From: Mya arenaria
Lineage: Eukaryota > Mollusca > Bivalvia > Myida > Myidae
Direction of reading: 5' to 3'
DNA length: 64,000 bases
Assembly: GCF_026914265.1 (NCBI RefSeq)
Contig: NC_069134.1
Coordinates: 68,255,594-68,319,593, forward strand
The position numbers and the translations under genes are program-made. Under the pieces are notes generated by a model. The model did not search any database. It was given only the letters and a program-made list of their open reading frames with translations, and was not told the DNA's origin. Positions 14,996-50,548 of this stretch are shown here, one piece after another. Each line of letters starts with the position of its first letter. Position 1 is the stretch's first letter.

Positions 14996-14997
14996 TT

Positions 14998-20140: not shown

Positions 20141-20143
20141 TTT

Positions 20144-21478: not shown

Positions 21479-21479
21479 T

Positions 21480-25650: not shown

Positions 25651-25990
25651 TTTCTGTTGTTTTTTCCTTTAAGTTGTAATCAATATAAATTTCTGAAAGG
25701 GCTGTGATTCTTAATGCCACTTTGTTTTTAAATGTCAGCAAACTATAATTTAAAAAAAAAAGCCAAGTAATAAACAACATAACTGACATAGGCACCCCAT
25801 CCAATCAAACCAAAATGAGATTCACCCCTGCATTTGATGATTTTTTTAAAAGTACATTAGAAGTATTAAGGCAATTATTTGTAACAATTAATGGTCTGTA
25901 TTTTAGATGCTTTTTTGACATTGTAAAAAGGAGATTGAAGACAAGATCACTTTTGCTACAGTAACACCTAAGATGACACTTGATTTTTAT

Positions 25991-28594: not shown

Positions 28595-28602
28595 ATTTCT
28601 AT

Positions 28603-28925
28603 GACTTTACTCCATCTAGGAAATGCAATTATGGTGAATGTGAATATAATTGGGGTCTGTGGTATCACTATGGCATAGAATTTGTATCAGCAGTTCTATT
28701 TTTTTCTTTTTACAAGCAGTTTTACCAACTCTGGCTTGGTAGGGTTGACTGAACAAACTTTCATGTCAAGCCCTGCATTGGATTTGCAATTCAGAGTTGT
28801 ACCGTGACAGGAAGCAAAAATGTTGAGGTAATAGAAAGTTTCCGTGAACAACTATGATCGTGACTAGGTATTGACTGGTTCCAACTTGCCTGCTATTTTT
28901 CAAATTTTCAGTTGATTAAGTAGGG
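28603..28925 (+). other. RAE1 upstream region
   Basis: A polypyrimidine-AG (tttcaaattttcag, AG at 28910-28911) lies just before the RAE1 start, which would suit the acceptor of a 5' UTR intron. The promoter and a leader exon were not identified. Confidence 0.35.
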
Positions 28926-31900
28926 ATGAGTTTCTTTGGTTCTTCAACAAGCACATTCGGCACATCCAGCACCACCGGCATGTTTGGGACGGCCACAAAT
29001 ACAAACTACAATGCTATGAAAGATATTGAGGTATGTGATGAACAAGAAATCATTTTGCAAATGTGATGTTGTTGAAATTTGAAAACTGATAAACAATTAT
29101 TTGAAGTACACTGATCTTTTTATTATTAATGTCAGTGTCAATTTTTAAGTTTTACCTTATTTTTGCTGGTTCTTTTTCTGAGTCACTAATAAATTAAGCA
29201 TGGTACAAGTATATTCATTATAAACAGCTTCAGTCATTTCTTAACTTTACGTTCATATCCTAATATTTTCCTAGTCCGATTTAAAGACAAGTACAAGTGA
29301 TATTAACATATAAGTATGTTACATTAAATGTAACATTACATTAAAATTAATGAAAATTAAGTATGTTAGAATTAAGGAATTTATGAAGTTATAATATCAT
29401 ATGACCAGTGATATACTTAACTAAGGAAAATGACTTGGGTTAGAAAAAATGATTTATTTTACTGATAAGATGTTTTATGAATACTGACCTGGGGCTTTTT
29501 CTAAACCTTTTTTTTATAGCCTCATCGGCAACATTCCAAATACCATGGAGATATATACATGTATACACCACTTTGGATGTACAATTCTTAATGACATTGA
29601 ATCCATTGACAGCTGTATCTTGTCTTTCCAATACTTAAAAGTTACCAATGTAACGGGTATAGTTTATCATCCCAACATATACATACATGAATGATCTATA
29701 GTAAACTACATATATTTGAAAATCTTCCTGAATTTCCTTAATACCTTGATTTGATTTTATCTGATGATACTGTAGATGATACTTCTATGCATTCTTCATC
29801 TTCTGTAAAAGATCGGTAAAGAACTCTATATCAGAGTGCCATGCACACAATTATGCATGTATGTTTTCTGTATGATACAGGTGACCTCCCCACCAGATGA
29901 CAGTGTGAGCTGCCTGAAGTTCAGCCCAGAGTCCATGATGCAGTCTACATACCTTGTTGGAGGCAGCTGGGATAATAATGTAAGAATGATGGCTACTATA
30001 ATAATGTATGCCTAGGTGGATGAGATAATGGTTTCCATGTGGGGCTGGGATAATAATAATGTATACCTTTGCAGGCTGGGATTGATAAAATAATGTTCTC
30101 CTATGGGGGGCTAGAATAATAATGTACCAATTTGGGACTGGGATAAAAATGTCCATCTATGGGGCTGGGATAATAATGTTCACCTAGGTGGTCTGGGATA
30201 ATAATGGTAGCCATGGAATTAGGGGATGTACACCTTGTGGGCTGGAATAAGTATGAATACCTTAGGGGCTGAGGTAATTATGTAACCTTTTGGGACTGGA
30301 ATAACAATGCACATCTTTGGGATGCGATATTAATGTGCTCCTCGAGAGTTGCGATAATGTATGCTTTAGGGGCTGAGATAATAACAAATGCTCTTGGGGC
30401 TGGTATAATAATGTTTGCCAAGGGAGTGTGATAATGATGTACACTTTTGGGACTAGGATAGTATGTATGCCTTTTGGATGGGATAATAATGTTTCCCTTT
30501 GGGGCTAGGATAGTTATGTTCGCCTAGGGGGTGGGGCTGGAATTATAATAGTTGCTTTAATAGTGGACTGGGATAATAATTTTTGCCTAGAGGCTAAAGA
30601 TCTTGATACAATGAGAATGATGTAATCGTTGAACAGTAGATCAGGGTTTGACGCTAATGAAAGTCTGGGAGTCTGCCAGACTTCTAGTAACATTTAGTAG
30701 AGTAAGGGTTAGTTCATGGAATAGAAATATTTTTATAGTTTCTAAAATAAAACATTTAAAATTAAATCTTGTTCAGTATTGCTTTGGACAAACTTTTACT
30801 TTTTTTTCCGCATGTCTTTGAATTTATCTTCCATCACTGGACTCTTTCATTAATATTTATGACTAGGACCCCTTAAATGTAGGGAGTCTGGCAGAAACAG
30901 TCAGTATCCAATACTGTCTAAGATGTCTGTGTTTTACCGAAAAAGTTGTGGGTTAAAGTCCCATCAGGAATACATTCTCTTCACCTTATTCAATATTGTT
31001 CTTATGGTTATCCATAGACAAGCCTGTACGATTCCATTTATTCTAATGGCTATGTGATTTTCCGGTCCAACCAGAACACTCCGATTCTACTCTTAAAAGA
31101 TGCTTATTGAATATGGCCCAGAACTGGTTTTATCCAGAAAACAAACTTTGGGCTTCAAACAGTTAGACTTGTTAATAATTTGTTAAATAGCCTTTTGAGC
31201 TCTATGACAGTAATTTTAAATTCGCTAAGGGGATTGTTTGTAATGTTTTGCTAGAAGACTACAAATCTCAGACAGATCATGTGAGTCATTTATCTATGCA
31301 GGTTCGCTGTTGGGAGGTACAACAGTCTGGTAACATTGTCTTGAAGGCACAGCAGACCCATACTGGGCCAGTCCTCGCAGCTGACTGGAGTGATGTAAGT
31401 ACCTGGGCCTCATTTCATTGAATAATCTGTCAGATCTGGAATCATAAATCTGTCGGAACAGCATAGATGACAATGCTTTGAATTTTTTAATTTTCCTCAA
31501 TTTTGTTCAACTAGAATTCTTTGTTTCAATTTGGTAATATTGGACTAAAGCAGTGTGTTTTATTTCCATTTGGACATGGTACAGTATATAAATATCATAT
31601 GGCAGCATGTGTGATATTGATATTGTCAACCCGAGACCAGAATGATATTTATTTTATTAAACTGAACAAAATTAAGAACATAAAAATGTTTTAAAATAAT
31701 TTAATTCATTTTATTAAAGAAGTTTTACAAGGTAAACAAAATATAACATAATAAAATAATTAGACTAGAACAAAATTTCAATTGTTAATTTCCTGTCATC
31801 AGATGTTTTTGTGTACACATTGAATAGTGACGTCACTGCTGTATGTGTAATAGGGAGGCAATCACGTCATGATTTACCTAAAAATTGACACAGTTATATG

Positions 31901-34900
31901 CCCTTATATGACATTAAAAATATCATTGCGGTCACATGACCTGACAGTGAATTTTCGCTGGGTCACATGTCAAAAATGTTGAAAATGTTTCTGATTGTCA
32001 AAATATCTCTTTCGGGTAATGGGAATTACCATTTTAGACAAAAGGGAGGTATAATAATATATTTTTGCCATCATTTCCCAATTGACAATATTACCAATTG
32101 GAAGAAAGGGTGATTGTTGGTTTGACATAAGTCAAAGCCTTTTGATTTTTCTCTTGGTAGGATGGAACCAAGGTGTTTACGGCGTCGTGTGACAAGACAG
32201 CCAAGATGTGGGACCTGAACAGTAACCAGTTCATTCAGATAGCACAGGTTACCTTCCTTTACACTGCTTATATACAAAAAGACAAGCCCTGTGGCTGGAC
32301 TGTTGTAGAGCTATGACAGGCTTCTGATTAAAGCCTTAAATTTAAGTATTTTCCATATTTAATATTGAAATGTAAGTACTGTAGGCTTTTCGCTGCAAAT
32401 TATATTTCCAAGGTATAGGTTTTCAGTATTGACACTGAATTACAGTGGGAAATATTTCTCCTACATGTACATAATGTATTGTAAAAATAACATTTCAGTC
32501 ATGAAACAGAAGTATTTTTATTACACCTTTGCTTCAATAATGTTCTTTTGTAATTTGTTTTCTGTATAAAAGTAGGCACCTGAAATTTTTTTAAAAGGGA
32601 ATATTATATATTTTGATGATGTAATTATGACTGAACATTGCTTATGTGACTTTCTTTGCAGCATGATGCCCCCGTAAAGACCATCCAATGGGTAAAAGCT
32701 CCAAACTACTCGTGCGTTATGACCGGTAGCTGGGATAAAACTCTCAAGGTACAGTTTCCTATGATTTTGAGCTCTCTATTTTGAAAGTAAACAATCAACA
32801 TATTGACCTGTCATAACCTTTATGCCGTTAGCAGCAGTAGTGTCATGATAGAAAAAAAACACTGGAAACCAAGTGAGACAAATGTACATGTTTTTACATG
32901 TTTTATGAGCCTTTGGTCACACGCATGCCTTTCGGTGATTAAAGATATCATAACATGTATATATAATAAGTGACATGATCTAATTTGGAATACTAAAAAA
33001 GTTCAGCAAAATTCATCATCAAAACTCAGTATGAAAGAAAGTTACAATGAAATGAAGATATGCAGTTTGGCCACTTAAGTCTGAACTCAGACTTGAGACT
33101 GTTTGTAATCATGTCCCTGTTTACAGTGGTTTTTGTCTGACTCATTAACAGTAATGTAGAATTCAACTGTTTAAAACTTGAATATCGTGTTCCAGTTTTG
33201 GGATACACGACAAGCACAGCCGATCATGAGCATTCAGCTTCCGGAAAGGTGTTATTGTGCCGATGTAGTAAGTAGCCATTCATCACTGCTTATTCTTACT
33301 TCATTAGAAGCCATGGATATAATGCTTTGAGACTTAAATATGCTCACAATAATGGAAGCATGTTGTTTCCGCTTTGTCTTTCAGTCTGTCTAACTCCTCA
33401 TTGGGTGTTAAGATTTTTAAAAAATGTAGCATAGATATTAACAACGTTTAAACACAAAATGTCCGATGCAGTGAATAAAAGGCCCATATAGAACAATAAG
33501 GAAAAGTTTTCATGAGCTTCATTTTGACACCAGCAGGATGAAAAGAAGATTGCTCTTTTTTGCTTGTCTGTTTTTCGATAAAAAAGGAGAGGGATTTTGA
33601 TTGCCTTGGAAACTCATATGCCTCAAGATATTGAGCCTCTTGTTATAATAGTTGGCAAGGACAATATTTATATATATAGCAAGGCTTATAAGTATGACTT
33701 TAATAATTGTTGAGTTATGCCCCTTTTAGACTGTAAAAGTTAACTGAGTGCTCTTGTCTGAAAATATTAAAACATGTATTTATTTAAATAATATTAACTA
33801 TGTTAGATATAATGCTAAATAAATTATATTATTCAGAATGTAACTCTTACATGAACTAACTGGTATACTTGTATTTCACAGAAATACCCAATGGCAGTCG
33901 TGGGTACGGCGGGCCGTGGTCTGATCATCTACCAGCTGGAGAACCAGCCGCAAGAGTTCCGGAAGTTTGAGTCTCCGCTGAAATACCAGGTTGGTTATCC
34001 CCCTTGCAGTTGGTTTCAAATAGTAAAAATTAGACAGAAAAAATAAAACAATTCAGCTTTTTTTGGACTTAAAATTTAAGTGATATGTCATTTCATGTCA
34101 GCTTTTAGTGGAAATAAAGAGCAAAAATTAAAGATGCACTCTTATTCTCAAATATGATTTACCACAATTGATACATTTGTTTTAATATACCAAAAAGGAT
34201 GAATAAAATAATGTCGAAAACAAAGGTAATAATGAAGTACACAGAGTTAAGTTTGAAAAGAAAGGAGCAGAAACACGGAATTTCTACCTTAAATGACGTT
34301 AGTAGATCACAGTAAATCTTTTAACAATCACCATAAATTTTGATGTTTGCATTTTCAGCTATTAAATGCACAGTTACAATCTTGTTATCAGTAATTAATA
34401 TTTTTCATAAATTTATTATTTAGTAAGTAGTTAAAGGTTTATCAGTGAAAAATACATGTGTATGTATTGATTTTGAATAAGAGTGTCACTGTAAGTAACA
34501 GTACATTTTATGTATAGTATACTTTAAGGGACATTTCTTTTACATTTTTATAGTCAGCATACATTGCCTTTTCATATGATAGCAGCATTATCTTGCATCT
34601 AAATTTAACATTAAGGTTAATAGAGCTATCAAAATACAAGTTTCCTTGTCAGTTGGTTTGCGTAGATAATATATAGATTAAGTTGTTGATTTTTTCTACA
34701 GCACCGCTGTGTGAATATCTTCATGGACAAGAAGACTAATCAGCCAACAGGTTTTGCGCTGGGCAGTATCGAGGGTCGCGTGGCTATACACTACGTCAAC
34801 CCGACCAATCCTAAGGATAACTTCACGTTTAAGTGCCATCGAGCTAATGGAACATCTAGCAATATGCAGGATATATATGCTGTAAGAAGATTGAGATCAA

Positions 34901-36231
34901 AGCATACTTACTTTAGCTGAAAAATTTTCCACATGCAGAAATTGATATTCTCAATATTTAGCATAAAAAAATGTTTCAGAAAATCTAGTTTATACTACTA
35001 CATGGTAGCTTGATTGTGTTGACAGCTGAAAGCTGATATAAATAACTCTCGAGTCCGTTTCTTAGACAGAAACCAGTACTGGTGTCCATTATGAGAGGGC
35101 GGTGAGAAAGTACTCCTCGTGGGTATCGAACCCACGACCTCTTGGGTGAACAGCGGACACATATTCCGCTAAAGCACTCTCAACCTTGTAGAACAATCAG
35201 GACATGTATTATCGAAGCATCTTAAAAATCATATTTGTTGTCTCAAATTTCTTTTAACAAGCTAAAATTATAAAAGTAGTATTTTGCCTAACAACTTTTG
35301 TAAATAGCTTTATTGCACCATTTCAAATGAAATGGCAGAGAAAATGTGAGAAAAATATCTATTAACTGTCAAAGATTTGATAATCACCGGGAGCACGGCA
35401 GACTGTAAACAAATACATGTGACAGTGTTCACTTTCCTAGAGCTTGAAATATTACTTAAGCTATATTTAGCACAGATACAGCATCTCTTTGCATGAGTGA
35501 GAGTTTGTTTATCTTATAAACATGCCTACAAAATTCTCCCTACCATGGAAAAGTGGGAGCTCAGTTTCATCCTGGCTTAAGTCACTTAAAACTGTAGGAG
35601 ATTTTGGTGCCAAACGTTGAGGAAGAAATGATTTCCATGGATAGTCTATTGTTAATCTTCTTTTTTAATCCCCTAGGTCAATGACATCTCATTCCATCCG
35701 GTCCACGGAACCCTGGCCACTGTGGGCTCTGACGGGCGGTTCAGCTTCTGGGATAAAGATGCCCGCATCAAGTTGAAGACCTCGGAACAGTTTGACCAGC
35801 CCCTAACCGCCTGTAACTTCAACCCCCAGGGCAACATCTTCGCTTATGCCACAAGTTATGACTGGTCTAAGGTGAGACATTCAGTCAAGCGAGTTCAGTG
35901 GTTTGTCACATACTAGTTATCAACAGTAGCTGTTTGAATATTTTTTTGTGCAGGAGTATTAGTATTAGTTAACTAGTAATATTTATTTAATTTATAATGA
36001 TTGCGAAACGGTTATTACAACATCATGATTTTCACTCTATTTGGCACGATGTCTGGGACAAGGGTTGTCTTGTGTTTTTGGGGAAACAAGATTTTTGGTT
36101 GTTTTCCAATTTGCAACTTTTACATCTTTTTTCTACAGGGTCATGAAGGATTTGATCCCCAGAAAATGAAGCCTCACATTTTCCTACGCAGATGTTTTGA
36201 CGAGCTCAAGCCGTCAACAAAGAAGTCTTAA
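28926..36231 (+). CDS. RAE1: RAE1, mRNA export factor, WD40 propeller (ten exons, complete)
   Basis: Nuclear-pore associated seven-bladed WD40 protein that binds the GLEBS motif of Nup98 and of BUB1-family proteins and acts in mRNA export and spindle assembly. Exons: 28926-29030, 29881-29979, 31302-31394, 32161-32247, 32662-32748, 33196-33267, 33882-33989, 34702-34881, 35677-35871, 36139-36231; 372 residues against 368 in human. Key matches are the FG/ST-rich N-terminus ending [82 protein letters not shown] and SYDWSKGHE, all near-identical to vertebrate RAE1. All introns are GT-AG and phase 0. The start is fixed by MSFFGSS, the expected N-terminus. Intron 2 carries a minisatellite and intron 8 a SINE. 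Confidence 0.97.
29962..30600. repeat. Intronic minisatellite derived from the RAE1 exon 2 end
   Basis: About 20 degenerate units of roughly 30 bp, consensus ggggctgggataataatgt followed by a pyrimidine-rich gcctntgg. The core gctgggataataatgt reproduces the last bases of exon 2 plus the first GT of its donor (29965-29981), so the array begins at the exon-intron border. Many units keep an AATAATGT(A/T) donor-like step. It lies in intron 2, which is 1322 bp and the longest of the gene. Confidence 0.7.
35040..35186 (-). mobile_element. tRNA-headed SINE in RAE1 intron 8
   Basis: Read on the minus strand it has a tRNA-like head with a box-B match GGTTCGATACC inside the stem gtgggttcgatacccac, and an upstream A-box-like TTTAGCGGAA. 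It is followed by a core with ggacaccagtactggttt and gaaacggactcgagag. That core resembles the conserved central domain of SINEs described from molluscs; I recall it from memory and cannot test it. There is no clear tail or target duplication. Confidence 0.6.
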
Positions 36232-37205
36232 CCTTCATAATGAAGCATTGAAATTTTGTAACTTTTAGCAGTTGACCTGAACAGCGCTTATTTTTAGTCT
36301 TGTTCTGGTTATGATAAAATCAAATTGATCAAATTTTAACGTAGCTTTTCGTGATACAATCATCGCTCCATGGACATTTGTGTAACAGTATTCAGTGGAT
36401 GTGTACTGTGTTTTAGTAACTGCATGTGTCAACACAAGCTCATACAACTCTTATATGCATGAGGCCATACCAAATAGATTACATGTTTAGTGTCAGGTCC
36501 CATTTTCAAAATATACATACAAAGCGATACACCACAGAAAACACAAATCTGATTCTATTTAAAACAAATGTATATAGGAATGCTCATAATAGCATAGTTT
36601 ACCAATGAAATATCATACAGATTTTTTTTATACCTTTGAAGGTTCAAACAGCTAGAATTTGAACTCATTTTTGTTGAATGATTTATTCCTGATATCTGTG
36701 TTTTTTTAATTATCAATCTCTAGAAATTCAGTTTTCTTTGTTTTGATATCCATTTTATCCAAAATTATTTTATCATTCCGAAGGATGAAAACCTTTCTGC
36801 CCTATAACGCTTAACATAGAATGAATTTGGTAGAGCCTTACCTAGCTTGAGTCAGTGAACATGATTATTGTAATAATACTGAAGTGTTATAACTTTGACT
36901 GTGTGTGCATGAGATGATTTTGCAAGAGCCGAAAGGTACATGTTAGTAAACTGGTCAAAAGGCAGACGTTCTTGTTACTTGTGTTATATTTTATCATTTA
37001 ACATTTATTGCATCAAGTGTTAAACAACCATTACATATTTTCTTGTAAAGGACTTGTGTAATATCATTACCGGTATGCCACATTTTGCGCTACTGTTCCA
37101 CACTATGTCAAGCATTGTACAGATAAATTCATTGATGTCTTCATTTTTGGTGATAAAAATGTGTCATTTGATAAAAAAGAATCTAACATTAGTAGCCAAA
37201 TAAAA
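36232..37205 (+). other. RAE1 3' untranslated region, candidate poly(A) signal at 37199
   Basis: AT-rich sequence follows the stop codon. The hexamer AATAAA at 37199-37204 is a reasonable polyadenylation signal; later AATAAA copies lie near 37799 and 37925. The end is therefore only a candidate. Confidence 0.4.
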
Positions 37206-37476
37206 CAACATTTTATGAAACTTGTTACAGAATCATAACTTTCGATTCAATAGATTTTGTTTAAAATGAAACTCATTTTTGATGACAATGGTTTCATTTG
37301 ATAAAGGGAATCTTACATTTGTTGCCACTTAGTACAGCATTTTATGAAACTTGTTAGGCTTAAAAATCAACCCATGTTTTCTCCGGATACTTCACCAAAG
37401 GCTCGCTTAATTCTTTTTCTAAATTTGTTTCAATTAATTTGTATTAAAGGGCAACTCATTTAAAATAATATACATA

Positions 37477-37651
37477 CAGTCAAACCCAAATAGCTCGAAC
37501 TTTGAGGGACTGGCGTAAATACTTCGTGCCTCGGAAAATTCGAGCCAAGCGGAAATGATTACATTCAGTTTAAAGAAATTGGTCATTTACATTCAGTTCG
37601 ATCCAACCAGGAATTCAAACCAAGCAAGTTTGAGCCAACGAGGGTCGACTG
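37477..37651. mobile_element. Tc1/mariner-type MITE with TA target duplication
   Basis: A 175-bp element begins CAGTCAAACCC and ends, inverted, CAGTCGACCCTCGTTGGCTC, bounded by TA on both sides (37475-37476 and 37652-37653). Internal phrases such as agctcgaac, gagccaagcgg and gagccaacgagg form an imperfect foldback. The CAGTC..ACC termini and TA duplication fit pogo/Tigger-like non-autonomous elements. Non-coding. Confidence 0.65.
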
Positions 37652-38665
37652 TACTTCTAAAATTTTGAAAAGGATCCAATGTTATTGATTTGGTTTGAAA
37701 TGAAGAAATATCAATGGAGATATAAACTGCTTTTTTATACTTAATCAAAAGTAATAAGACAATTATTGTTAATAATGGTTAAAAATTACTGTCAGAGAAT
37801 AAAGCTTAAAATTGAAGTAACATATTATTATAATTATATGTTACTTCAATGTTCAGCTATATTCATATTATTAGCTCTTACATCAGTTGTATTTGAGTTT
37901 CTGCCTTTATCAAGTTATAAACGTAATAAATAAAGTTAGTTTCTGTTGCCCAATCTCAATTAAGATTGTAATGCTTATGATCATACATTTCCAGGCGTAA
38001 CTTCGTTTTTGGCATAAACTGCACTTGAATAAAAAGGCAAAAAATATAACCAAGTGTCATTGCAATTGGACAAGTTTGAGGGAGTTATGTCCCTTAGATC
38101 GTTTGACTTCAAGTATATTCAATTTTTGGAAACTTCTTCAATCGTTGTAGTTGTATTTCAGTTACGCGTGTTGTATTTGAAAAAAAACCTCGAGGTAGTT
38201 ATAGCCCTTGTTAAAATGGTATATGGAATTGTGATTAGTCATCGTGAAAGTTTATATACATTATATCTTTGTCCAACAATAGTTCCTCAACAGCCATTTC
38301 ATCTATCCATTTACTACTGACACCATATTTCTGCCAATAAGAAATTAACATAAGTAGTTAGTACACTGTTTTTTAAAATGCGAGCTGAGGCGATGATACA
38401 AATAGTGGTGACAGATCCCCTGGTAAAATATATTGCAATTGCAGATATATGTAAATTGAACTTCAGTATTATAATTTTTTCTATTCATTTCACACAAGTA
38501 ACGTCATTGCAACAACTGATTTTATTTTCATAAATTTATAATAAGAAAGTTGCATAGGTTTTGAAAAAAATGGAGTGGTTTGAGGAAGAATGATCTTTTG
38601 AAAAGTTATGTGAAGTTTAATTTATAATAATAATAAGTTACCATTATTAATATAACTGCTTTAGT
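37652..38665. other. No gene seen; 40-bp palindrome at 37811-37850
   Basis: AT-rich spacer between the convergent RAE1 and claudin-like genes. The palindrome attgaagtaacatat ... atatgttacttcaat has 15-bp arms and a short loop. An 88-codon plus-strand frame at 38054-38320 has no recognisable domain. Confidence 0.5.
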
Positions 38666-38734
38666 GCCGATATTTATTGGGGTTTTAACAACAGTTTTTC
38701 AGTGTCTTCTGAATTTTGAGCCGACATTCAAAGT

Positions 38735-41700
38735 CTAGTTTTGGCTTTTCTGTTCAACTGGCAGATCGTATAAACTTTTGAAAGTCAGATTCTTAAACTC
38801 CACGAACAGTAGTGCACCCGTCACTGTGCTCATCAACGTTGAAATAATGGCGAAGTAATACGACCATGACAGGTACAGTTCTTCTAATCCTACGCCTGGG
38901 AAATAGTTCTTCTCAATCTTTGAATACAGTTCCCGATTTTTGGTGGCATACACTACTAGGGTCATAATTTGCAGACTGACTGAAAGAAAGAATGTTACAT
39001 TTGAGGAAATTCTGTACTAGTAAGTAAATATAGAGTAAGCAATGGTATTTAAAGTTTTATTTCCATTACTTTAAATCATTTAGTGCGACGAAATAAAAAA
39101 AAAATTGTTCTATGTCTCAATTCAGGGTAAAAATTACTCCATAATATGAAACAGATTTTGTGTTTTTTAAGACATTTTTTCTTATTTAATGAATAAAGTA
39201 AGACAATTGATGGTTTGTAAAATGTTTTACTGATAAGTGGTAAGTCATACTCCCCATATTTTTTAATCACTCTCATGTATTTCGCGTTACCTGTGGCAAA
39301 GGCGGCGAGGCACATGGCGATGACTAGAGGCCGGGCCTTGTGGAGCGCCGGAAATACCACGCACAGGAAGTACAGGACGAAAAGGCAAGCGTAACACATG
39401 GCCGCCAGTATGGAGAAAGCCTGAGTCGCCACGCTGAAGTCTGAAAAATAGACGTTGGTTTGTTATACTAGCGGCTGGAGCTTGGTTAGCGCCGGAAATA
39501 CAGCAAACGGGTAGAAGAGAGGACGTGAACGTGTGTAGCACATGGCCGACAGAATGGGAAGGTCTGGAAACGTGCGTAGCACATGGCCGACAGAATGGGA
39601 AAGTCTGGAAATACTAGCGGGCGGAGCTTGGTTAGCGCCGGAAATACAGCACACGGGTAGAAGAGAGGACGTGTACGTGTGTAGCACATGGCCGACAGAA
39701 TGGGAAGGATTGAAATACTAGCGGGCGGAGCTTGGTTAGCGCCGGAAATACAACACACGGGTAGAAGAGAGGACGTGCACGTGTGTAGCACATGGCCGAC
39801 GGAATGGGAAAGTCTGGAAATACTAGCGGGCGGAGCTTGGTTAGCGCCGGAAATACAGCACACGGGTAGAAGAGAGGACGTGTACGTGTGTAGCACATGG
39901 CCGACATAATGGGAAGGATTGAAATACTAGCGGGCGGAGCTTGGTTAGCGCCGGAAATACAACACACGGGTAGAAGAGAGGACGTGAACGTGTGTAGCAC
40001 ATGGCCGACAGAATGGGAAGGTCTGGAAATACTAGCGGGCGGAGCTTGGTTAGCGCCGGAAATACAGCACACGGGTAGAAGAGAGGACGTACACGTGTGT
40101 AGCATATGACCGACAGAATGGGAAAGTCTGGAAATACTAGCGGGCCGAGCTTGGTTAGCGCCAGAAATACAACACACGGGTAGTAGAGAAGACGTGCACG
40201 TGTGTAGCATATGACCGACAGAATGGGAAAGTCTGGAAATACTAGCTGGCGGAGCTTGGTTAGCGCCGGAAATACAGCACACGGGTAGAAGAGAGGACGT
40301 ACACGTGTGTAGCATATGACCGACAGAATGGGAAAGTCTGGAAATACTAGCGGGCGGAGCTTGGTTAGCGCCAGAAATACAACACACGGGCAGTAGAGAG
40401 GACGTGCACGTGTGTAGCATATGACCGACAAAATGGGAAAGTCTGGAAATACTAGCGGGCCGAGCTTGGTTAGCGCCAGAAATACAACACACGGGTAGTA
40501 GAGAGGACGTGCACGTGTGTAGCACATGACCGACAGAATGGGAAAGTCTGGAAATACTAGCGGGCGGAGCTTGGTTAGCGCCAGAAATACAACACACGGG
40601 TAGTAGAGAGGACGTGAACGTGTGTAGCACATGACCGACAGAATGGGAAAGTCTGGAAATACTAGCGGGCGGAGCTTGGTTAGCGCCAGAAATACAACAC
40701 ACGGGTAGTAGAGAGGACGTGCACGTGTGTAGCATATGACCGACAGAATGGGAAAGTCTGGAAATACTAGCGGGCGGAGCTTGGTTAGCGCCAGAAATAC
40801 AACACACGGGTAGTAGAGAGGACGTGCACGTGTGTAGCATATGACCGACAAAATGGGAAAGTCTGGAAATACTAGCGGGCGGAGCTTGGTTAGCGCCGGA
40901 AATACAACACACGGGCAGTAGAGAGGACGTGAACGTGTGTAGCACATGACCGACAGAATGGGAAAGTCTGGAAATACTAGCGGGCGGAGCTTGGTTAGCG
41001 CCGGAAATACAACACACGGGTAGTAGAGAGGACGTGCACGTGTGTAGCACATGACCGACAGAATGGGAAAGTCTGGAAATACTAGCGGGCGGAGCTTGGT
41101 TAGCGCCAGAAATACAACACACGGGCAGTAGAGAGGACGTGAACGTGTGTAGCACATGACCGACAGAATGGGAAAGTCTGGAAATACTAGCGGGCGGAGC
41201 TTGGTTAGCGCCGGAAATACAACACACGGGCAGTAGAGAGGACGTGAACGTGTGTAGCACATTGCCGACAGTATGGGAAACTCATGTAAATTCTGGTAAG
41301 AAACATTGGATTCAAACAACAAACAGAATCGTTAACTTTTATTGCGTTTGAAACAACACATGTTGTTTATGTGTTACTTAAAGCCAACTGTCCAAAGTAT
41401 ATAGAGAATAATACCATGTGCGAATATCATGTGCGAATATTATGTGCGAATATCATGTGCGAATATTTAATTCATTGTTCAGCTGTTGGTACACTCGAAA
41501 ACTTAGTAACATCACTTTTACACGTGAAACAGAATAAGGACGTGAAAAATAACTTGTTCCATCAACATCTCCAAAAGTAAAAACTTTCCTTTTCCTTATT
41601 CAGATCACGACAGATATTCGACATATTTGCCTATTGCTTTGAAATATTTCTGGAGTCCATTGTTATATGTCTTATTAAATTTCGTTCCAAATTGACTGTT

Positions 41701-42719
41701 TTCTTCTTACTGTTATAAACACACACCACGCAGCAACTGACAGATGCGCGTTGAACATAAGGCTAAATCCAGTTCACTCTCAATAGCGTTACGTTTTTCG
41801 TCAGAATCTTGAAAACCTTTTCTGTCATTTTTTTTAAAAAATAAATCTTTTACAAAAGAGGTCTTATTTAAAATTCTGATGAAGATTTATTAATATCATT
41901 GAAACAAGCATTTTGTTCACATTTTACATGGAACTATTGTTTTCTATGTTTGACTCTACAAAATGTGAACGAGTCCTCCTGAACATTTTCTGGAAACCAT
42001 GGTATGTTTTTAAAGACATTTTGATATAATATAAGTAATACCGGTAGTTAGTTGACATGAAATAACATTTTAATGATTAAGAATGGGCGGAGTGAGCGTA
42101 ACAATATGAAATATCATTGGCTGAAAATGTAGGTTGTGTTCTAACAAGTGTTCACGGGTGTTTAAATGTCCGCCTCCTACCACTCATCCGATACACAATC
42201 CCTGCGTCGGATTTTGCGTTGTCGATGTATCAGCCAATGAGGTTATGTTCTTAGTCAGTTAGATGACCTAAATTAAAATCTTAATGATTAAGAGGGGCTC
42301 GTTCGCGACGCTCACTCCAGCCATTCTTAATCAGTAAGATTTTTATTCATGCCATCTATTACTTCTGCGATAAAGGTTATCTTACCTGTATTGACGGGAA
42401 AACATTCCCAAGCCGCACTGTCCACTCTTTTAACACAAAAATCCCACAGCCCCATTTTCATACTAGCCCCACTCGCCGACCAATTCTTTGTTGCCATGGA
42501 TACGATGAACGAAACTGTTGCTATGAGCAGAACGGCGAATGACGCAATAAAATTAACTGACGTCAAACCGCAAGATGCACAGCGACGGACCGATGACGTC
42601 ACAGCCTCGGTTGGTCTTCCGTTTGGAGCCTTTGGTACAGCTCGTTTTTCAGAATTTGCATTAGTGTCGATGGTAACAGTCTTTCCTTTCATAATGCTCC
42701 TCGTATTTTCTATTTCCAT
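38735..42719 (-). CDS. PMP22/claudin-family four-transmembrane protein (three exons)
   Basis: Membrane protein of the PMP22/EMP/claudin fold. Coding exons: 42719-42386, 39440-39291 and 38979-38735; both introns are phase 1 with donors ACAG|GTAAGA and ACAG|GTAACG and acceptors TTTTTCAG|AC and CTTTCAG|TC, giving 242 residues. TM1 is about 53-76. The first extracellular loop holds the family signature: W80, GLW at 90-92, C95 and C106. TM2 is about 119-142, TM3 148-172 and TM4 199-221, with a short cytoplasmic tail. The N-terminus is unusually long (about 52 residues before TM1); a second Met at residue 10 is an alternative start. The family is clear, but assignment to claudin proper, PMP22/EMP or a CACNG-like subfamily is not. 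A candidate AATAAA lies about 60 bp past the stop (38678-38673). Confidence 0.85.
39465..41277 (-). repeat. 105-bp minisatellite in intron 1, derived from exon 2 of the host gene
   Basis: About 17 units of 105 bp start some 25 bp from the exon 2 acceptor. Read in the gene's sense, each unit repeats the exon 2 core: unit text CVVFPALTKLRPLV against exon text CVVFPALHKARPLV, and ILSAMCY against ILAAMCY, about 19 of 30 residues matching by hand. Each unit also carries TATTTCCAG|AC, like the true acceptor TTTTTCAG|AC. A period of 35 codons leaves two frames open for 493 and 542 codons; these are by-products unless transcripts show otherwise. Units near 39545-39600 include a truncated copy. Confidence 0.9.
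41320..42074. other. Claudin-like intron 1, remainder
   Basis: AT-rich intron sequence. A 13-bp tandem repeat, catgtgcgaatat, occurs four times at about 41415-41466. Nothing else seen. Confidence 0.6.
42075..42332. mobile_element. Foldback MITE at the 5' end of claudin-like intron 1
   Basis: The ends GATTAAGAATGGGCGGAGTG and, inverted, GATTAAGAATGGCTGGAGTG form inverted repeats of about 24 bp over 258 bp. A second internal inverted pair (atcattggctga / tcagccaatga) makes the element fold back. It ends about 50 bp from the exon 1 donor. No coding sequence; superfamily not assigned. Confidence 0.65.
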
Positions 42720-43495
42720 TTTTCCAAAGAATGTTTTACATCATGCAATAAATAAAACTTTAAATCTGTTTTAAACTAATATTTTCACTTTTTAATTGAC
42801 CAGCATGTAGAAGTCTGTCTTTTTGCCTTTTCCAGGATTCATGTAAATGCAGTGGAGTTTTTTATTGAACAATTTGTTGTTCACGACTTTCAAACAAGAT
42901 AAACCTGTTCATTTCACATCATTATTGCAGCCGTATTATTAAAAAATAAACAGTCCCAAACCTTATAATCCGTTATGTGAGCTTTACGACAATTATTGAT
43001 AAGATATTCAGATTTCTAAAAGGCATTTCAATCTGATATCCCGGAACTATGGATGCCTTGGTCTGTTTAAAGGAGTAAACTCAGTGAACTTTTAATACAT
43101 CTAACAGGATTAAAGTGACGCTTCGTTAAGTTTTCGCGGAGGTCCCCTGCCGTTGACGGTAAATACGGCGATGAAATGCATGCAGCAGTAATCGTTTGAT
43201 CAGACTTGAATATTAGCATATGATTATTGATCATCTTAAACTGATTAGCACAGAAAATATTTTGAATTTAGAATTATAATAATGAAATAATGTAATAACG
43301 AAATTTTATTGTATGCTTTCCAGTGATTTAAAAATATCTATCAATGAAATAAAACTTGTATTTCACTAATTCAAATAGTGAAATTTATAAAAATAGCTTT
43401 TGGTGATCACTCGGTGAAATATATTACGGTCTTACACTTAAACAAACAATTATCCTCTTTATCTGCAATATATGACACAGATGCCCCCATTCCTA
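42720..43495. other. Upstream of the claudin-like gene; nothing recognised
   Basis: AT-rich DNA presumably containing the promoter and 5' UTR. No convincing TATA-Inr pair or leader exon was identified. Confidence 0.4.
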
Positions 43496-43504
43496 TGCAC
43501 GTGT

Positions 43505-43775
43505 GGTAAGCAGCCTAGCGGCGTGAAGTAAGCGGCCTAGCGGCGTGAAGTTAGCGGCCTAGCAGCGTGAAGTTGGCGGCCTGGCGGCCTAAGTGTCAGA
43601 AATTGTTCTCTATTTCAAAGCAATTGTCCATGCATTTACTTGGAAAACAATGATAAATTAATGTGTTTTATTAATAATTTAACATCCTGAAGCGGTTATC
43701 AACAATTGTCAAAGAAGTCGATCAAGCAGTTCAACGGCCTAGCGGCGTGAAGATAGCGGCCTAGCGGTATAAAAT
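43505..43775. repeat. 21-bp GC-rich repeat agcggcctagcggcgtgaagt
   Basis: Four units lie at about 43508-43595 and two more at 43733-43770 in the same orientation, separated by AT-rich DNA. They stand out by GC content. No coding sense is visible. Confidence 0.65.
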
Positions 43776-44690
43776 GGTCTATTTCAACGCATTTTTATAC
43801 GCGTTATTTTTTTAATTTCTCGCCTTTGTCATAAAAGCAATGGCCATTATCCCGCCCTGAGTTGATGAATGTACATAAAAGTTACCAGTTGTTGATGCTT
43901 ATGCTGATCATGTGCTGAAAAACAATCAGGTCTGGATAAGCTTGATGGCTATATTATGTGACCTAAGTATCAATTTGCATCGCTAAGTTCAATTAACATC
44001 TTACGGTTCTCGCTTAGAACTATTCTACTTCTTAGAACTAATATATTATACTTAAACCCGGATAGCCTAGAAAGCAACATTAAGTAAACAATTGTTTTCC
44101 ATTTTTAGTAGCAGCGACCTTGACCGCAGATGCACAACTTCACATGAAGACTAAAAATTTTGTGAAGGTTTAATACTTTAACTTATGTTTTTAGATTAAT
44201 GTTACTCTATATGCCTAATGCCATACATCAATGACCGTAACTCTGCAGAGCACAGCAACATATATGGCAATCAGATCTTTTAGGCAGAAAGTTTTACGGA
44301 AAATACGGATAATGCCTCAAAACGGTCCATACTAATAACGAAAAACAACAACATTTTATCGGAAGTCCATTCAAGCACATATATTGAGAGCAAATATGAA
44401 GAATGTCATCTCAAAATTCTTTTAAACATAACGCAACCTAACAACCATGCATGTATGTACATTTAGACGCCATGTTAACAGACATAATTTATTTTAACGG
44501 TGTTGTGTGCACGTATACTTTTGTTGGGAAAATTTGCCCGAGCAATATTTTTTGGAGAATGCAGTTTATGTATATATGTTTATGACCAATCAAAAGAACA
44601 ATGCACCAGATATTGAGTTTTAATATACTTTCATAGAGGTGTGCTTTTGTTAATTTCTCTCTTTTTACAGATTTTAACACCACGTAAGTG
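43776..44690. other. No gene seen
   Basis: AT-rich DNA without supported features; it leads into the 58-bp array. Confidence 0.5.
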
Positions 44691-44704
44691 CTTTCAATGA
44701 TCCC

Positions 44705-47700
44705 TAATCAATGAATCTGCGTTTATATGGCCAGCGTCAAGTTTTATATCGCTAGTGGCACTGAAAAATGAATCTGCGTTTTATATAGCCAGCGTCATGT
44801 TTTATATCGCTAGGGTCATTGAACAATGGATCTGTGTTTTATATAGCCAGCGTTATGTTTTATATCTCTAGTGTCATTGAATAATGAATCTGCGTTTTAT
44901 ATTGAAATGAAAGCGTCAAGTTTTTTTATCGCTAGTATCATATATTAAACAATGACTCTGTATTTTATATGGCCAGCGTCATGTTCTATATCGCTAGTGT
45001 CTTTGAATAATGACTGCATTTTATATTGCCAGCGTTATGTTTTATATCGCTAGTGTCATTGAACAATGACTCTGTATTTTGTATTGCCAGCGTCAAGTTT
45101 TATATCGCTAGTGTCGTATATTGAACAATGACTCTGCATTTTATATTGCCAGCTTTATGTTTTATATCGCTAGTGTCATATATTGAACAATGAATCTGCG
45201 TTTTATATTGCCAACGTCATGTGTTAAATGGCTAGTGTCTTTGAATAATGACTCTGGGTTTTATATGGCCAGTGTTATGTTTTATATCGCTAGTGTCATT
45301 GAACAATGACTCTGTATTTTATATGGCCAGCGTCATGTTTTATATCGCTAGTGTCATTCAACAAGGACTCTGCGTTTTATATGGCCAGCGTCATGTTTTA
45401 TATCGCTAGTGTCTTTGAATAATGACTCTGCATTTTATATTGCCAGCGTTATGTTTTATATCGCTAGTGTCATTGAACAATGACTCTGTATTTTGTATTG
45501 CCAACGTCAAGTTTTATATCGCTAGTGTCATATATTGAACAATGAATCTGGGTTTTATATTGCCAACGTCATGTGTTATATGGCTAGTGTCTTTGAATAA
45601 TGACTCTGGGTTTTATATGGCCAGTGTTATGTTTTATTTCGCTAGTGTCATTGAACAATGACTCTGTATTTTATATGGCCAGCGTTATGTTTTATTTCGC
45701 TAGTGTCATTGAACAATGACTCTGCATTTTATATTGCCAGCGTTATGTTTTATATCGCTAGTGTCATTGAACAATGACTCTGTATTTTGTATTGCCAGCG
45801 TCAAGTTTTATATCGCTAGTGTCATTGAACAATGACTCTGCATTTTATATTGCCAGCGTTATGTTTTATATCGCTAGTGTCATTGAACAATGACTCTGTA
45901 TTTTGTATTGCCAGCGTCAAGTTTTATATCGCTAGTGTCATATATTGAACAATGACGCTGCATTTTATATTGCCAACGTCATGTGTTATATGGCTAGTGT
46001 CTTTGAATAATGACTCTGGGTTTTATATGGCCAGTGTTATGTTTTATTTCGCTAGTGTCATTGAACAATGACTCTGTATTTTATATGGCCAGCGTTATGT
46101 TTTATTTCGCTAGTGTCATTGAACAATGACTCTGCATTTTATATTGCCAGCGTTATGTTTTATATCGCTAGTGTCATTGAACAATGACTCTGTATTTTGT
46201 ATTGCCAGCTTTATGTTTTATATCGCTAGTGTCATTGAACAATGACGCTGCATTTTATATTGCCAGCGTTATGTTTTATATCGCTAGTGTCATTGAACAA
46301 TGACTCTGTATTTTGTATTGCCAGCGTCAAGTTTTATATCGCTAGTGTCATATATTGAACAATGAATCTGGGTTTTATATTGCCAACGTCATGTGTTATA
46401 TGGCTAGTGTCTTTGAATAATGACTCTGGGTTTTATATGGCCAGTGTTATGTTTTATTTCGCTAGTGTCATTGAACAATGACTCTGTATTTTATATGGCC
46501 AGCATCATGTTTTATATCGCTAGTGTCATTCAACAAGGACTCTGCGTTTTATATGGCCAGCGTCATGTTTTATATCGCTAGTGTCTTTGAATAATGACTC
46601 TGCATTTTATATTGCCAGCTTTATGTTTTATATCGCTAGTGTCATTGAACAATATTTACACCTCAACTTCCATTCCTCAATTCCCTTCATCAATCGATGA
46701 ACGCAACATCTTTGGATATGTTCGGATCGTAATTCATTGCATAACAATATACATGAAAGCTATTTATCTTGTTATTGGTTGTATTGTGTCTGCAGGTCCC
46801 GTAAAATATAGATCAACATTTTTAAAAGTGTAAGTTTATTATATTTTAAATATATTGGTACCAGAAGTGTTTTAATTTTACGTTTTAAAGTGATTTCAAG
46901 TGGTTGATCTTTTCCCGCGTTATTGTGACGTCATTTGAAAAAAATGTTTCCGGTTATAGTCGGGTCGTTCTATTTACAGAATGGGTAAAAACGGATTACT
47001 GAAATGTTTTCTTAAATGAAATGAAGTATTTTTTTAACAATTCTTGAATGAAATAATGAAATATTGGTGTAAATATAAGGAATGAATTGCGGGGTTGATG
47101 TCATTATCGGGGATATGAACGCAATTGGGTTGGTCAAAGTACGCGTGGAGTCCTTTGGACTCCACACACATTGACCAACCCAATTGCGTTCATACCCCGA
47201 TAATGACATCAACCCCACAATTCATTCCTTAAATGAATCTGTATTTTATATTGCCAGCGTCATGTTTTATATCGCTAGTTTCATATATTGAACAAATGAA
47301 TCTGCGTTTGATATTGCCAACGTTATGTGTTATATCGCTAGTGTCATATATTGAACATTATGACTCTGCGTTTTATATGGCCAGCGTCATGTTTTATATC
47401 GCTAGTGTTATTGCACAATGAATCTGCGTTTTATATTGCCAGCGTCATGTTTTATATCTCTAGTGTCATTGAATAATGACTCTGCATTTTATATTGCCAG
47501 CGTCAAGTTTTATATCGCTAGTGTTATTGAATAATGACTCTGCATTTATTTAGCCAGCGTCATGTTTTATATCGCTAGTGTTATTGAACAATGAATCTGC
47601 GTTTTATATTGCCAGCGTCATGTTTTATATCTCTAGTGTCATTCAACAAGGACTCTGCGTTTTATAAAGCCAGCGTTATGTTTTATATCGCTAGTGTCAT

Positions 47701-47815
47701 TGAATAATACATCCGTGTTTTATATAGCAAGCGTCATGTTTTATATCGCTAGTGTCATTAAACAATGATTATACGTTTTATATTGCCAGTGTCATGTTTA
47801 TATTGCAAGCGTCAT
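44705..47815. repeat. 58-bp dimeric minisatellite, about 43 units, interrupted once
   Basis: The unit combines two similar half-units: gttttatattgccagcgtcat and gttttatatcgctagtgtcat, followed by tgaacaatgactct. Some units carry a 4-bp atat insertion. The variant tgactctgggttttatatgg recurs at 45601, 46011 and 46421, an exact 410-bp spacing equal to seven units plus one 4-bp insertion, so a higher-order repeat exists. The array is broken at about 46655-47232. Short frames within it are by-products. Confidence 0.93.
46655..47232. other. Insertion in the 58-bp array, ending in a 154-bp palindrome
   Basis: Non-satellite DNA splits the array. Its right part (47077-47230) is a near-perfect inverted repeat with arms of about 75 bp: aaggaatgaattg ... 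ttgatgtcattatcggg ... atgaacgcaattgggttgg, centred on gtggagtcctttggactccac. Aatatttacacc near 46653 and its inverse ggtgtaaatat near 47066 bracket the rest. It may be a foldback element or a recombination product. No gene is visible. Confidence 0.7.
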
Positions 47816-48090
47816 TGAACAAATGCACTGCTTCTTTTGGAACTATCCTCTTCTGATATAATGCTATCTTTAGCCCATTTCTGCAGGTCTTCACTTCTTT
47901 TGTCATGTCAAGTTGCGATTAAAAGTTGAACACTAGGTCTTGAGAAGTCATGAGATTGTCCTTGCTTCGAGCGTTATCATTTTAGTAGCACTAATAACAG
48001 TGCCTGATGAAGAACTCCAGATGTACACCACCCTGCTTCTAAATGATTATTTTCTGATATCTAAATCTTGAATTAAATAGTTTTTGCCTT
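47816..48090. other. No gene seen
   Basis: AT-rich DNA leading into the fossil recombinase region, possibly part of the same element. Confidence 0.35.
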
Positions 48091-49170
48091 TTTCCTCTCG
48101 TGCCAGTATTTTCAAGCAGTTTTAGCAGTTTAAAAAATTGTTCCGTCAAAATAATAATTCTTTATCATCAACTTCAACAATACATCCTCCATAAAGTTGG
48201 TTATTTCAGTTTTTCTGAGTCTATCTCGTATGACAGGTTTGGCAAATCTCTGCACTCTTTATTTTTGCTCTTCTCTAGATATTTCAGTCTATAACGACTT
48301 TAACAAAAAAACTTGTCACCATTTGGTCATACAATAAATGTTTTTATTGCACTGAAGATTCAATAGAGGTCCTTTTCCCTTCATGTTTTTACTTCATTTT
48401 TTTTTTTTGTGTGCCTTGACTCGTACATTAAAATTGTATGCACAGTTTCTTAGTAGATCTTTCAAGTTAGTTTTCAGTATTCGTTATTATTTGAGTGGTG
48501 TAAGATCTCTTCGTCAATTGTTAGATTTTAATTTAGACAGTATCAATCAGTTACTTCTAAATTTCTCTTTGAGAGTGATCTCTCGATTAAAAGGTCATTG
48601 TGTTTAACGGGCTGAAAATCGTCATTTTTTATTTTATTTTAAGGCTCAAGATTATTATTTTTTTTGTTTTTTTTTTGTTTGCTTGTTTCTTATTAGCTAG
48701 AAAGTCTACCTTTGTGTCAACTACGTTGAGTGATTAGCTAAGCATAGGTGTTTATTGCACTCGGATGTATCAGTGGTAGAAACTATTTTAGTAGTTTCTC
48801 TGAAATGTTCAAAAAGATCCAATTTGAAAACTCCTTTAATGGAATTATCTGGTTCTTACCTTTGCCATGTTTCGCCGCTTATTTTAACATGATTAATACT
48901 GGTAAAGGTCTACCTACAGATGCTTTGATGGTGAACCTGTTATTTATTATTTGTTTCATTAACATACCTTTTTTATTTTGGAGAACATTGCACTGGATTC
49001 TTCTTTGCGTTTTCCTCGTTCGTTCAGACGTGGTTTTGCCAATTGTTTTTTATCTCTCAAGAATAATGTTTCGGCTGATGAAATTCAAATTATTGAAAAC
49101 TGGCATTCTGATGTTTATAAGCGTTATATTTTGTCTTTATTTTATTTCATTTGTATGATCCTCTATGTAT
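48090..49170 (+). mobile_element. Fossil tyrosine-recombinase element (DIRS-like or Crypton-like)
   Basis: Scattered plus-strand pieces resemble a transposon tyrosine recombinase: a core-binding segment with YYLSGVRSLRQLLDF and a C-terminal catalytic segment with SFRRG followed by SADEIQIIENWHSDVYKRY. Such recombinases occur in DIRS-type retroelements and in Cryptons; no reverse transcriptase belonging to it can be assigned, so the family is open. The copy is broken, with several breaks, and looks old. No terminal repeats were found. Confidence 0.55.
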
Positions 49171-49254
49171 GCCCATATCTAAAATACTATTTCTATTAAT
49201 TGTTCTGACTTGTTGATTTATTATTTAAGTTATCATATTCATTCTGGCCGCTTT

Positions 49255-50020
49255 CAGAACTACATATGGATCAAACTACCCTATTAAGGATGGTAGAAGA
49301 CTGGCAAACGCCGTAATACAAATATGTAGGCGCAGTTCTAATGGATCTCTCAAACGCTTCGACTGCCTGTCCCATGATTTCATCTTACACAAGCGTAATG
49401 CATGTAAGCCTGCACATCTATCTTACAAACAGAAAACAACGGGTCAAACTTGGTCAAATAGCTAGTGTAACACAGTGTGACTCCATCCTAAAAGGTGTGC
49501 CACAAGGATCAATATTAGGGTCTCTAGTCTTCAACATCTTTATCAATGACATCTTCTACTTTGTCAATAATGCAGCCTTGTATTCTCACGCAGGTGACAA
49601 TACTCCTGCTGTGTGTGATAAAATTCTAGGCGTTGAGGTAGATAGTCTATTAAATTGTGATGCTTAGATTTCTCAAATGTGCAAATATAAAGCTAAGCAA
49701 CTGAATATCCTTAAACGATTAAGCAACTTTTTGACAATCAATGCTAAGCTTATTATCTTTAAATCTTTTATCAGATCCAATTTCAACTACTGCCCTGTTG
49801 TTTGGCATTTTGTAGCAAGACAAACACAACAAAAATAGAAAAGATTCAATACAGATCTTTAAAAAAATGTTTTTAATGATTACACCTCAACTTACGAAAA
49901 TCTTCTTCATGGAGTTCAATTGCCAACATTACATATGAGGAGGGAACGACGAATCGCTATTGAAACTTACAAATGTATGTACGGTATATCACCAGAATAT
50001 GTTCAAAACCTTGTGCAGTG
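49255..50020 (+). mobile_element. LINE reverse-transcriptase fragment, decayed
   Basis: A plus-strand stretch encodes YLTNRKQRVKLGQ, LKGVPQGSILGSLVFNIFIND and, further on, LNILKRLSNFLTINAKLIIF, RSNFNYCPVVWHF and LPTLHMRRERRIAI. These are the fingers/palm and C-terminal tail of a CR1/Jockey-type LINE. The catalytic box usually read as YADD is SHAGD here. The reading frame shifts near 49355-49425 and stops occur near 49665, 49835 and 50020, so it cannot encode an active enzyme. The 5' part and ORF1 are absent. Confidence 0.75.
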
Positions 50021-50029
50021 ATATGTCAA

Positions 50030-50548
50030 CTAGAGGAACCGTGCGCGTGTGGATTGCTTGCCAGTGCAGCTTGGAAATCTAGTTTATGTTATCACTGTGT
50101 ACAGTTCTCTAACCGATTTTACTTTTTGCATTTTTATTCATGAAGATATTAGGAACCGACTTTTGTAAACTCTTGTTCCAATATTGTACCTATATAAAAC
50201 TATATGCTTTTATTTCCAGGTCTCCAGTTCGTCGTTATGTTTTGATATTTGATGTACGTTTGCTATTCATGTCGAACTATATATATTATTGAGCAAATGT
50301 TTCTTGTTAGCATATTTCACTGACTGTGAATAAAGATCATTTATCTTGTATTTTGTATATATAGATAGATAGAAAGGTATCTATCTATCTATCCGATAAA
50401 AAATGATAAAGGGAGGTAGTCCGTAATATATGTTCACTGATTTTTAAAAATGTTCCGAAAGGTGTTGTCTGCTGCATCTTCGACGCCACCTACATCGTGG
50501 AAAGCACGCCGCTGATCTCAAAGCACAATCAATCAAATATTAATTAAA
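50030..50548 (+). other. FKBP1A upstream region
   Basis: Contains a tetranucleotide GATA/TATC stretch at about 50365-50395 and, nearer the gene, a moderately GC-richer patch (about 50460-50520) that may be promoter and leader. No TATA box was identified with confidence. Confidence 0.35.

What the first reader, a model, noticed from the sequence alone, without database searches (positions are those of the whole stretch)
39291..41277. Intron array built from the gene's own next exon
The 105-bp minisatellite filling much of claudin-like intron 1 is homologous to exon 2, which starts about 25 bp away. In the gene's sense, units and exon share ILxxMCY and CVVFPAL.K.RPLV. Each unit also keeps an acceptor-like TTTCCAG|AC in the same phase as the real TTTTTCAG|AC. 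The period of exactly 35 codons keeps the gene's own frame open over about 14 units (to 493 codons). Either exon 2 was tandemly amplified and decayed, or in-frame exon repeats could be spliced in some transcripts, replacing TM2 by Cys/Pro/Arg-rich modules.
Basis: partly seen in the sequence, partly recalled or inferred. Interest (0 to 1): 0.85.

Follow-up and report, generated by a model that had tools for sequence, protein, structure and literature searches.

The report
Intron minisatellite copied from next exon
An intron of a clam claudin-like gene holds a length-variable tandem array of decayed partial copies of that gene's own next exon; it looks like non-coding debris of local duplication rather than a source of new protein modules.

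Summary
On the minus strand a 105-bp array (39467-41280) lies in intron 1 of a PMP22/claudin gene, 26 bp from exon 2 (39291-39440). Full units are degenerate copies of exon 2 nucleotides ~23-118 plus a 10-bp joint. The match is far above shuffles (z 18-20). In the held genome the unit was found only here and in an inverted copy ~1 Mb away; the gene protein hit only these loci, apart from two weak hits.

The 'spliced in-frame module' reading is not supported. Units lack exon 2's donor, and the best array GT scores 3.4 against 7.4 and 11.0. All 18 acceptor-like starts tested here, and all 12 in the second copy, meet a stop before exon 2's donor. Variation shows no coding bias in the gene frame (codon positions 7/13/7). 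A 549-codon ORF out of register is longer.

Best account: an old partial tandem duplication across the intron 1/exon 2 boundary decayed inside the intron and was later amplified as a fast-changing minisatellite. The duplication type is known; a large intronic minisatellite built from the adjacent exon is unusual. No function is shown.

The parts
42386..42719 (-). Exon 1 coding part of the claudin-like gene (inferred); donor CAG|GTAAGA, phase 1
   Evidence: ORF 42327-42740; donor score 11.0; Pfam PF00822 over the joined protein
39441..42385 (-). Intron 1 (inferred), of which about 1.8 kb is the array
41293..41299 (-). Acceptor-like TTACCAG|AA at the distal edge, 12 bp before the exon-2-like sequence starts; possible relic of the duplicate's own acceptor (not shown)
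   Evidence: score 7.85 against 7.11 for the real acceptor, recalled score tables; flank homology to the real acceptor not better than controls
39467..41280 (-). 105-bp minisatellite: 17 full or nearly full units and one 41-bp unit; a unit is exon 2 nt ~23-118 in degenerate form plus the joint ATTTCCAGAC
39564..39604 (-). 41-bp truncated unit, which breaks the 105-bp register near exon 2
39441..39466 (-). The 26 bp of intron left between array and exon 2, with the real acceptor TTTTTCAG
39291..39440 (-). Exon 2 (150 bp, phase 1-1; by family topology, recalled, TM2 and start of TM3), source of the array unit
   Evidence: identical in the second copy, 150 of 150
38735..38979 (-). Exon 3 coding part, to the stop codon (inferred)
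   Evidence: ORF 38735-39016; acceptor score 8.99 at 38979

Best explanation
A short tandem duplication spanning the 3' end of intron 1 and the first ~118 bp of exon 2 put a partial exon copy upstream of the real exon 2. The copy has no exon 2 donor, so it stayed inside the intron and decayed without coding constraint. A derivative of 105 bp, mostly exon sequence, was later amplified and keeps turning over by unequal exchange or slippage, so that two copies of the locus differ in unit number and have rearranged units. The array is spliced out with intron 1. Shown: homology, proximal boundary, restriction to this locus and its copy in the held genome, no coding constraint, array difference between the two copies. 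Inferred: the exact first duplication, the order of events, the exchange mechanism, and removal in splicing.
For: Unit-exon homology z 18-20 over ~97 bp. The unit was found only in the two copies of this locus. The gene protein likewise, apart from two weak hits at E 0.26 and 0.42. The proximal edge joins exon 2's CTAGT to the intron 26 bp before exon 2, as a duplication junction crossing the boundary would. Divergence of unit consensus from exon 2 is K80 0.24, or 0.41 with the poorly matching middle, while units match at 95%: old seed, younger array. The second copy is 97.4-100% identical in the unique segments compared, but its array is 1392 bp against 1814 bp, with a 25-bp sub-repeat in seven tandem copies at one place and two 41-bp units. 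A C>T variant sits in 11 of 18 unit starts here and 0 of 13 in the second copy (sequences listed), which suggests recent spread here (or loss there). Variable sites fall 7/13/7 at codon positions 1/2/3; synonymous fraction 0.24 observed, 0.27 expected in the gene frame (23 units).
Against: The distal edge shows no detectable homology to exon 2's own acceptor region, so the left end of the first duplication is not reconstructed. A 24-bp middle stretch differs from exon 2 at 15 of 24 positions, against 14 of 68 elsewhere, more than even decay predicts. The core has the same length as its exon counterpart (92 and 92) and the period is a multiple of 3, which could hint at an early coding phase. 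In one other frame the synonymous fraction is 0.45 against 0.275 expected. No RNA evidence and no related species were available.
Confidence: 0.85

Rival explanations
1. Array of 'poison' 3' splice sites. Most units carry a CTAAC branch-point-like motif about 27 nt before TATTTCCAG|AC, so the array competes with the real exon 2 acceptor; any use of it brings a premature stop and loss of the transcript, making unit number a copy-dependent brake on the gene.
For: 14 of 15 TTTCCAG sites in the array have CTRAY 18-42 nt upstream (9 of 11 in the second copy), against 242 of 3023 AGs elsewhere on that strand of the window; exon 2 itself has no CTRAY. The unit acceptor score of 4.79 lies in the top 10% of AGs in the window. 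All 30 array entries tested meet a stop before exon 2's donor.
Against: Copies of one ancestral unit are not independent, so 14 of 15 is close to one observation. The real acceptor scores higher (7.11), although it has no CTRAY in that range itself. An AG (CTAG) lies between branch motif and acceptor. Score tables and the branch consensus are approximate and recalled. No RNA data.
Confidence: 0.05
2. In-frame exon modules: units are spliced into some transcripts as extra Cys/Pro/Arg-rich 35-residue repeats.
For: The period of 105 bp is 35 codons; the gene frame is open for 496 codons stop to stop.
Against: Best of 158 array GTs scores 3.42, against 7.35 and 11.0 for the gene's donors. Stops before exon 2 in 18 of 18 and 12 of 12 entries. 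Variation is heaviest at second codon positions. Another frame is open longer. 1613 of 2000 shuffled 105-mers leave at least one frame of a strand open. Units of 104 and 41 bp break the frame.
Confidence: 0.02
3. Chance resemblance or dispersed repeat: the minisatellite is a genome-wide repeat that happens to look like exon 2.
For: The window is rich in other minisatellites, and one of them has many matches on other contigs. The genome search scores only its best candidates and skips very common words (tool's note).
Against: z 18-20 over shuffles; the unit was found only in the two copies of this locus; the genome search with the gene protein hits the units.
Confidence: 0.01

Closest known systems
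Tandem genomic duplication across an intron 1/exon 2 boundary (potato RdRp gene; PMC4974935, abstract and Results section read)
   Same: Duplicated segment takes the 3' end of intron 1 and the 5' part of exon 2; exonic sequence of the upstream copy ends up inside an intron.
   Different: In potato a new intron was gained through a cryptic donor. Here the partial exon copy appears to sit within the existing intron, has decayed, and was amplified to 18 units.
Tandem exon duplication and alternative exons (recalled; U2AF1 case PMC5224494 seen in search listing only)
   Same: Local copying of an exon beside itself.
   Different: Copies here are partial, lack the donor, and no path through them to exon 2 is open.
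Intronic minisatellites linked to splicing (C. elegans CeRep25B; PMC4039745, passages read)
   Same: Minisatellite inside an intron beside a spliced exon.
   Different: In the passages read CeRep25B is a 24-base repeat clustered on chromosomes III and, less, II; here the unit was found at one locus and its copy and is exon-derived.
Polymorphic minisatellite VNTRs in general (PMC8096271, search listing only; otherwise recalled)
   Same: High unit identity, truncated units and sub-repeats, different length in two copies of the locus.
   Different: The source of the unit is identifiable: the adjacent coding exon.

Membership tests
PMP22/EMP/claudin family (the host gene) | Family profile match over the four-helix region | tested here: met
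   PF00822 34.4 bits, cut-off 26.7, residues 57-219 of the inferred protein. A sequence search of solved structures gave only one weak match, lens fiber membrane intrinsic protein, E 0.15
PMP22/EMP/claudin family (the host gene) | W-GLW-C-C motif in the first extracellular loop (motif recalled) | tested here: met
   Exon 1 reads NWSASGASMKMGLWDFCVKRVDSAAWEC by inspection
Minisatellite / VNTR | Head-to-tail units with high identity | tested here: met
   Period 105, 16.3 copies, 95% matches
Minisatellite / VNTR | Unit number differs between alleles | tested here: inconclusive
   The inverted second copy on the same contig differs in array length and structure, but whether it is an allele placed as a duplicate or a true recent duplicate is not settled
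Partial tandem duplication across an intron-exon boundary | Novel junction joining the exon interior to upstream intron, with homologous copies on both sides | tested here: inconclusive
   Proximal junction CTAGT|ATAACAAACC fits; distal flank homology not detected
Alternative tandem exon (functional) | Acceptor and donor flanking an open reading frame | tested here: not met
   No donor score above 3.42 in the array; read-through stops in 18 of 18 and 12 of 12
Alternative tandem exon (functional) | Inclusion in transcripts | not testable with these tools
   No RNA data held

The most novel reading that the evidence does not exclude
The array is a length-variable brake: repeated acceptor modules built from the gene's own exon (branch-point-like CTAAC plus TTTCCAG|AC) divert some transcripts of a claudin-like gene into premature stops, so unit number tunes gene output.
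Probability: 0.05. Interest if true: 0.7.

Novelty: new variant of a known kind. Interest (0 to 1): 0.36.

Why it matters
It is a readable case of where a single-locus minisatellite comes from: the source exon still sits 26 bp away, one duplication edge is preserved, and two copies of the array can be compared. It shows how coding sequence can be recycled into intron mass, an origin that usually cannot be traced (general knowledge, not tested). If the acceptor-decoy reading held, repeat number would be linked to splicing of a junction-type protein, but nothing here shows that.

Tried and rejected
Rejected: in-frame splicing modules; genome-wide repeat; chance. By eye I first took the distal edge (AATCCAATGTTTCTTACCAG) to be homologous to exon 2's own acceptor region; three controls did not support it (47% of 2000 shuffles as good; anchored extension score 0, and 7 of 28 other intronic YAG sites as good), so I do not claim it. 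Whether the joint motif ATTTCCAGAC came from the real acceptor could not be decided; a third candidate, the distal-edge AATTTACATGAG, fitted worse (score 3 against 7). Differences between exon and unit (9/7/13 at codon positions 1/2/3 over 92 columns) do not separate selection on exon 2 from selection on the unit. A Pfam scan of one unit's translation written twice gave only matches below the curated cut-offs (best PDCD10_N, 17.5 bits, cut-off 19.8), which I treat as chance.

Rows left out: one search aligned only units of 104-105 bp (23 rows from both copies), odd-length units were dropped; one search listed 16 of the 17 full unit cores, the one next to exon 2 fell outside the scanned range; the printed count of the T variant was wrong by a slip in the script (0), and the 11 of 18 and 0 of 13 given here were counted from the unit starts it listed. 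In one search arrays with a period under 19 or fewer than 2.5 copies were left out.

Papers: ten searches ran. One search was about the genome assembly; nine were about the feature. None of the papers listed was seen to describe an intronic minisatellite built from its adjacent exon. This is weak evidence: only titles and abstract openings were seen for most, searches listed 15 of 435 and 15 of 326, and the library lacks most subscription journals. PMC10663159 was read in passages, PMC4974935 in abstract and Results section, PMC4039745 in passages.

Full report
Setting. The window is C13:68255594-68319593 of a genome of 1,216,080,610 bases in 18 contigs. [quoted passage not shown] PMC10663159, passages), but the species is an inference from size and contig number. 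The gene lies on the minus strand. Three exons were inferred from frames, GT/AG borders and phases: 42719-42386, 39440-39291 and 38979-38735. The joined protein matches Pfam PMP22_Claudin at 34.4 bits (cut-off 26.7) over residues 57-219. There is no RNA evidence for the exon borders.

The observation. TRF reports a 105-bp array, 39570-41280, 95% matches. Exon-2-like sequence runs from 39467 to 41280 with 18 unit starts: 17 full or nearly full units and a 41-bp truncated one. The unit aligns with exon 2 over about 97 bp (exon nucleotides 22-118); local scores of 60 and 40 under two schemes compare with shuffle maxima of 30 and 16 in 1000 shuffles each (z 17.8 and 19.9). Unit cores are 68-74% identical to the exon, the most distal one 74% (16 of 17 cores examined).

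Specificity. A genome search with the 105-bp unit gave 34 matches, all in two arrays on C13; the tool warns that such counts are lower bounds. A search with the inferred protein gave 26 matches at E up to 1; 24 lie in this locus or its second copy, many of them on array units through the exon 2 part, and two weak ones (E 0.26 and 0.42) lie on C11 and C3. Of 14 arrays in the window tested against unique sequence within 3 kb, this one scored highest (42, shuffle maximum 16). Three short-period arrays (two of 27 bp, one of 22 bp) also exceeded their shuffles (23, 27 and 31), which I take to be leftovers of neighbouring array copies; the other ten did not.

Anatomy. In the gene's sense the unit is exon 2 from its TTTC (nucleotide 23) to CTAGT (nucleotide 118), followed by the joint ATTTCCAGAC. 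The last 32 bp of exon 2 and its donor are not in the unit. At the edge near exon 2 the last unit ends CCGCTAGT and runs straight into ATAACAAACCAACGTCTATTTTTCAG|exon 2. A tandem duplication joining the interior of exon 2 to a point 26 bp upstream of it would leave this. The far edge has an acceptor-like TTACCAG (score 7.85) 12 bp before the exon-like sequence, but its flank is not detectably homologous to the real acceptor region. The joint's TTTCCAG is an acceptor-like motif of medium score (4.79 against 7.11; top 10% of AGs in the window; recalled, approximate tables). It resembles both the real acceptor and, by eye, the exon's own GTATTTCCGG, so its origin is open.

Coding test. If units were spliced in, they would need a donor or an open path to exon 2. 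The best of 158 GTs in the array scores 3.42, against 7.35 and 11.0 for the gene's donors. Starting at each array site in the phase of exon 1 and reading to exon 2's donor, 18 of 18 sites here and 12 of 12 in the second copy meet a stop; the counts include the distal TTACCAG of each copy and the joints that have lost the AG. The unit next to exon 2 runs into an in-frame TAA in the 26-bp remnant (stop at 39465). Among 23 units of 104-105 bp from both copies, variable sites fall 7/13/7 at codon positions 1/2/3, and changes are synonymous at 0.24 against 0.27 expected in the gene frame. One other frame shows 0.45 against 0.275. I read this as noise from 29 changes in related units, but it stands as a result against a flat pattern. 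A 549-codon ORF out of register is longer than the 496-codon gene-frame ORF, and 1613 of 2000 shuffled 105-mers leave at least one frame of a strand open. The long ORF is thus no more than a period divisible by three often gives.

Turnover. A second copy of the locus lies inverted at C13:69.25 Mb. Matches to the window parts searched (20001-39000 and 41300-60000) are spread over 69228462-69277330; no match was listed there for window ~29150-38500 outside the 9.9-kb stretch read directly. Two transposon-like insertions of the window are missing from it. The unique segments compared near the gene are 97.4-100% identical: upstream 725 of 736, exon 1 332 of 336, intron 1 1021 of 1048, exon 2 150 of 150, intron 2 plus exon 3 787 of 790. 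Its array is 1392 bp against 1814 bp, with two 41-bp units, a 96-bp period and a 25-bp sub-repeat in seven tandem copies at one place. A T variant sits in 11 of 18 unit starts here and in 0 of 13 of the second copy (sequences). So the array changes faster than its surroundings. Whether the second copy is a misplaced allele or a young duplicate is undecided.

Mechanism. Best supported: (1) an old tandem duplication across the intron 1/exon 2 boundary (inferred; one edge preserved); (2) decay of the donor-less partial copy within the intron, now K80 0.24-0.41 from exon 2, with a 24-bp patch more diverged than the rest (15 of 24 against 14 of 68) that is unexplained; (3) later amplification and continuing change (the two copies differ); (4) removal with intron 1 (inferred). 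Duplication across an intron-exon boundary is documented in potato RdRp (PMC4974935), where it made a new intron. Here it seems to have enlarged an existing one and become a minisatellite.

The bold reading left open is an acceptor decoy array. 14 of 15 TTTCCAG sites (9 of 11 in the second copy) have a CTRAY branch-like motif 18-42 nt upstream, against 242 of 3023 AGs elsewhere on that strand; the real exon 2 acceptor has none in that range, and every use tested would bring a stop. The sites are copies of one ancestor, so this is close to a single observation, and no RNA data were at hand. I give it 5%.

Verdict. Observation confirmed; the duplicated-and-decayed reading supported; the spliced-module reading strongly disfavoured by the sequence. 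An unusual and well-traceable origin of a minisatellite, otherwise ordinary.

Noticed in passing
window 20001-60000 (in parts) against C13:69228462-69277330 (minus): An inverted copy of much of the window, mostly 96-99% identical outside repeats, lies about 1 Mb away near the contig end; transposon-like pieces at window ~23284-24947 and ~26252-28079, each with many copies on other contigs, are missing from it. Misplaced haplotig or recent inverted duplication.
   Followed up: partly
window 14992-17979, 44709-46653, 47232-47825, 59318-61331: Several other large minisatellites (44-, 58-, 58/173- and 146-bp periods) crowd the window; the 146-bp one matches many places on other contigs.
   Followed up: partly
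L003:4871-5126: In the second copy a 25-bp piece of the unit has itself expanded to seven tandem copies, an array within the array.
   Followed up: partly
window 39367-39390 (exon 2, middle of the part matching the unit): This stretch differs from the unit consensus at 15 of 24 positions while the rest differs at 14 of 68; the cause of the patch is unknown.
   Followed up: no
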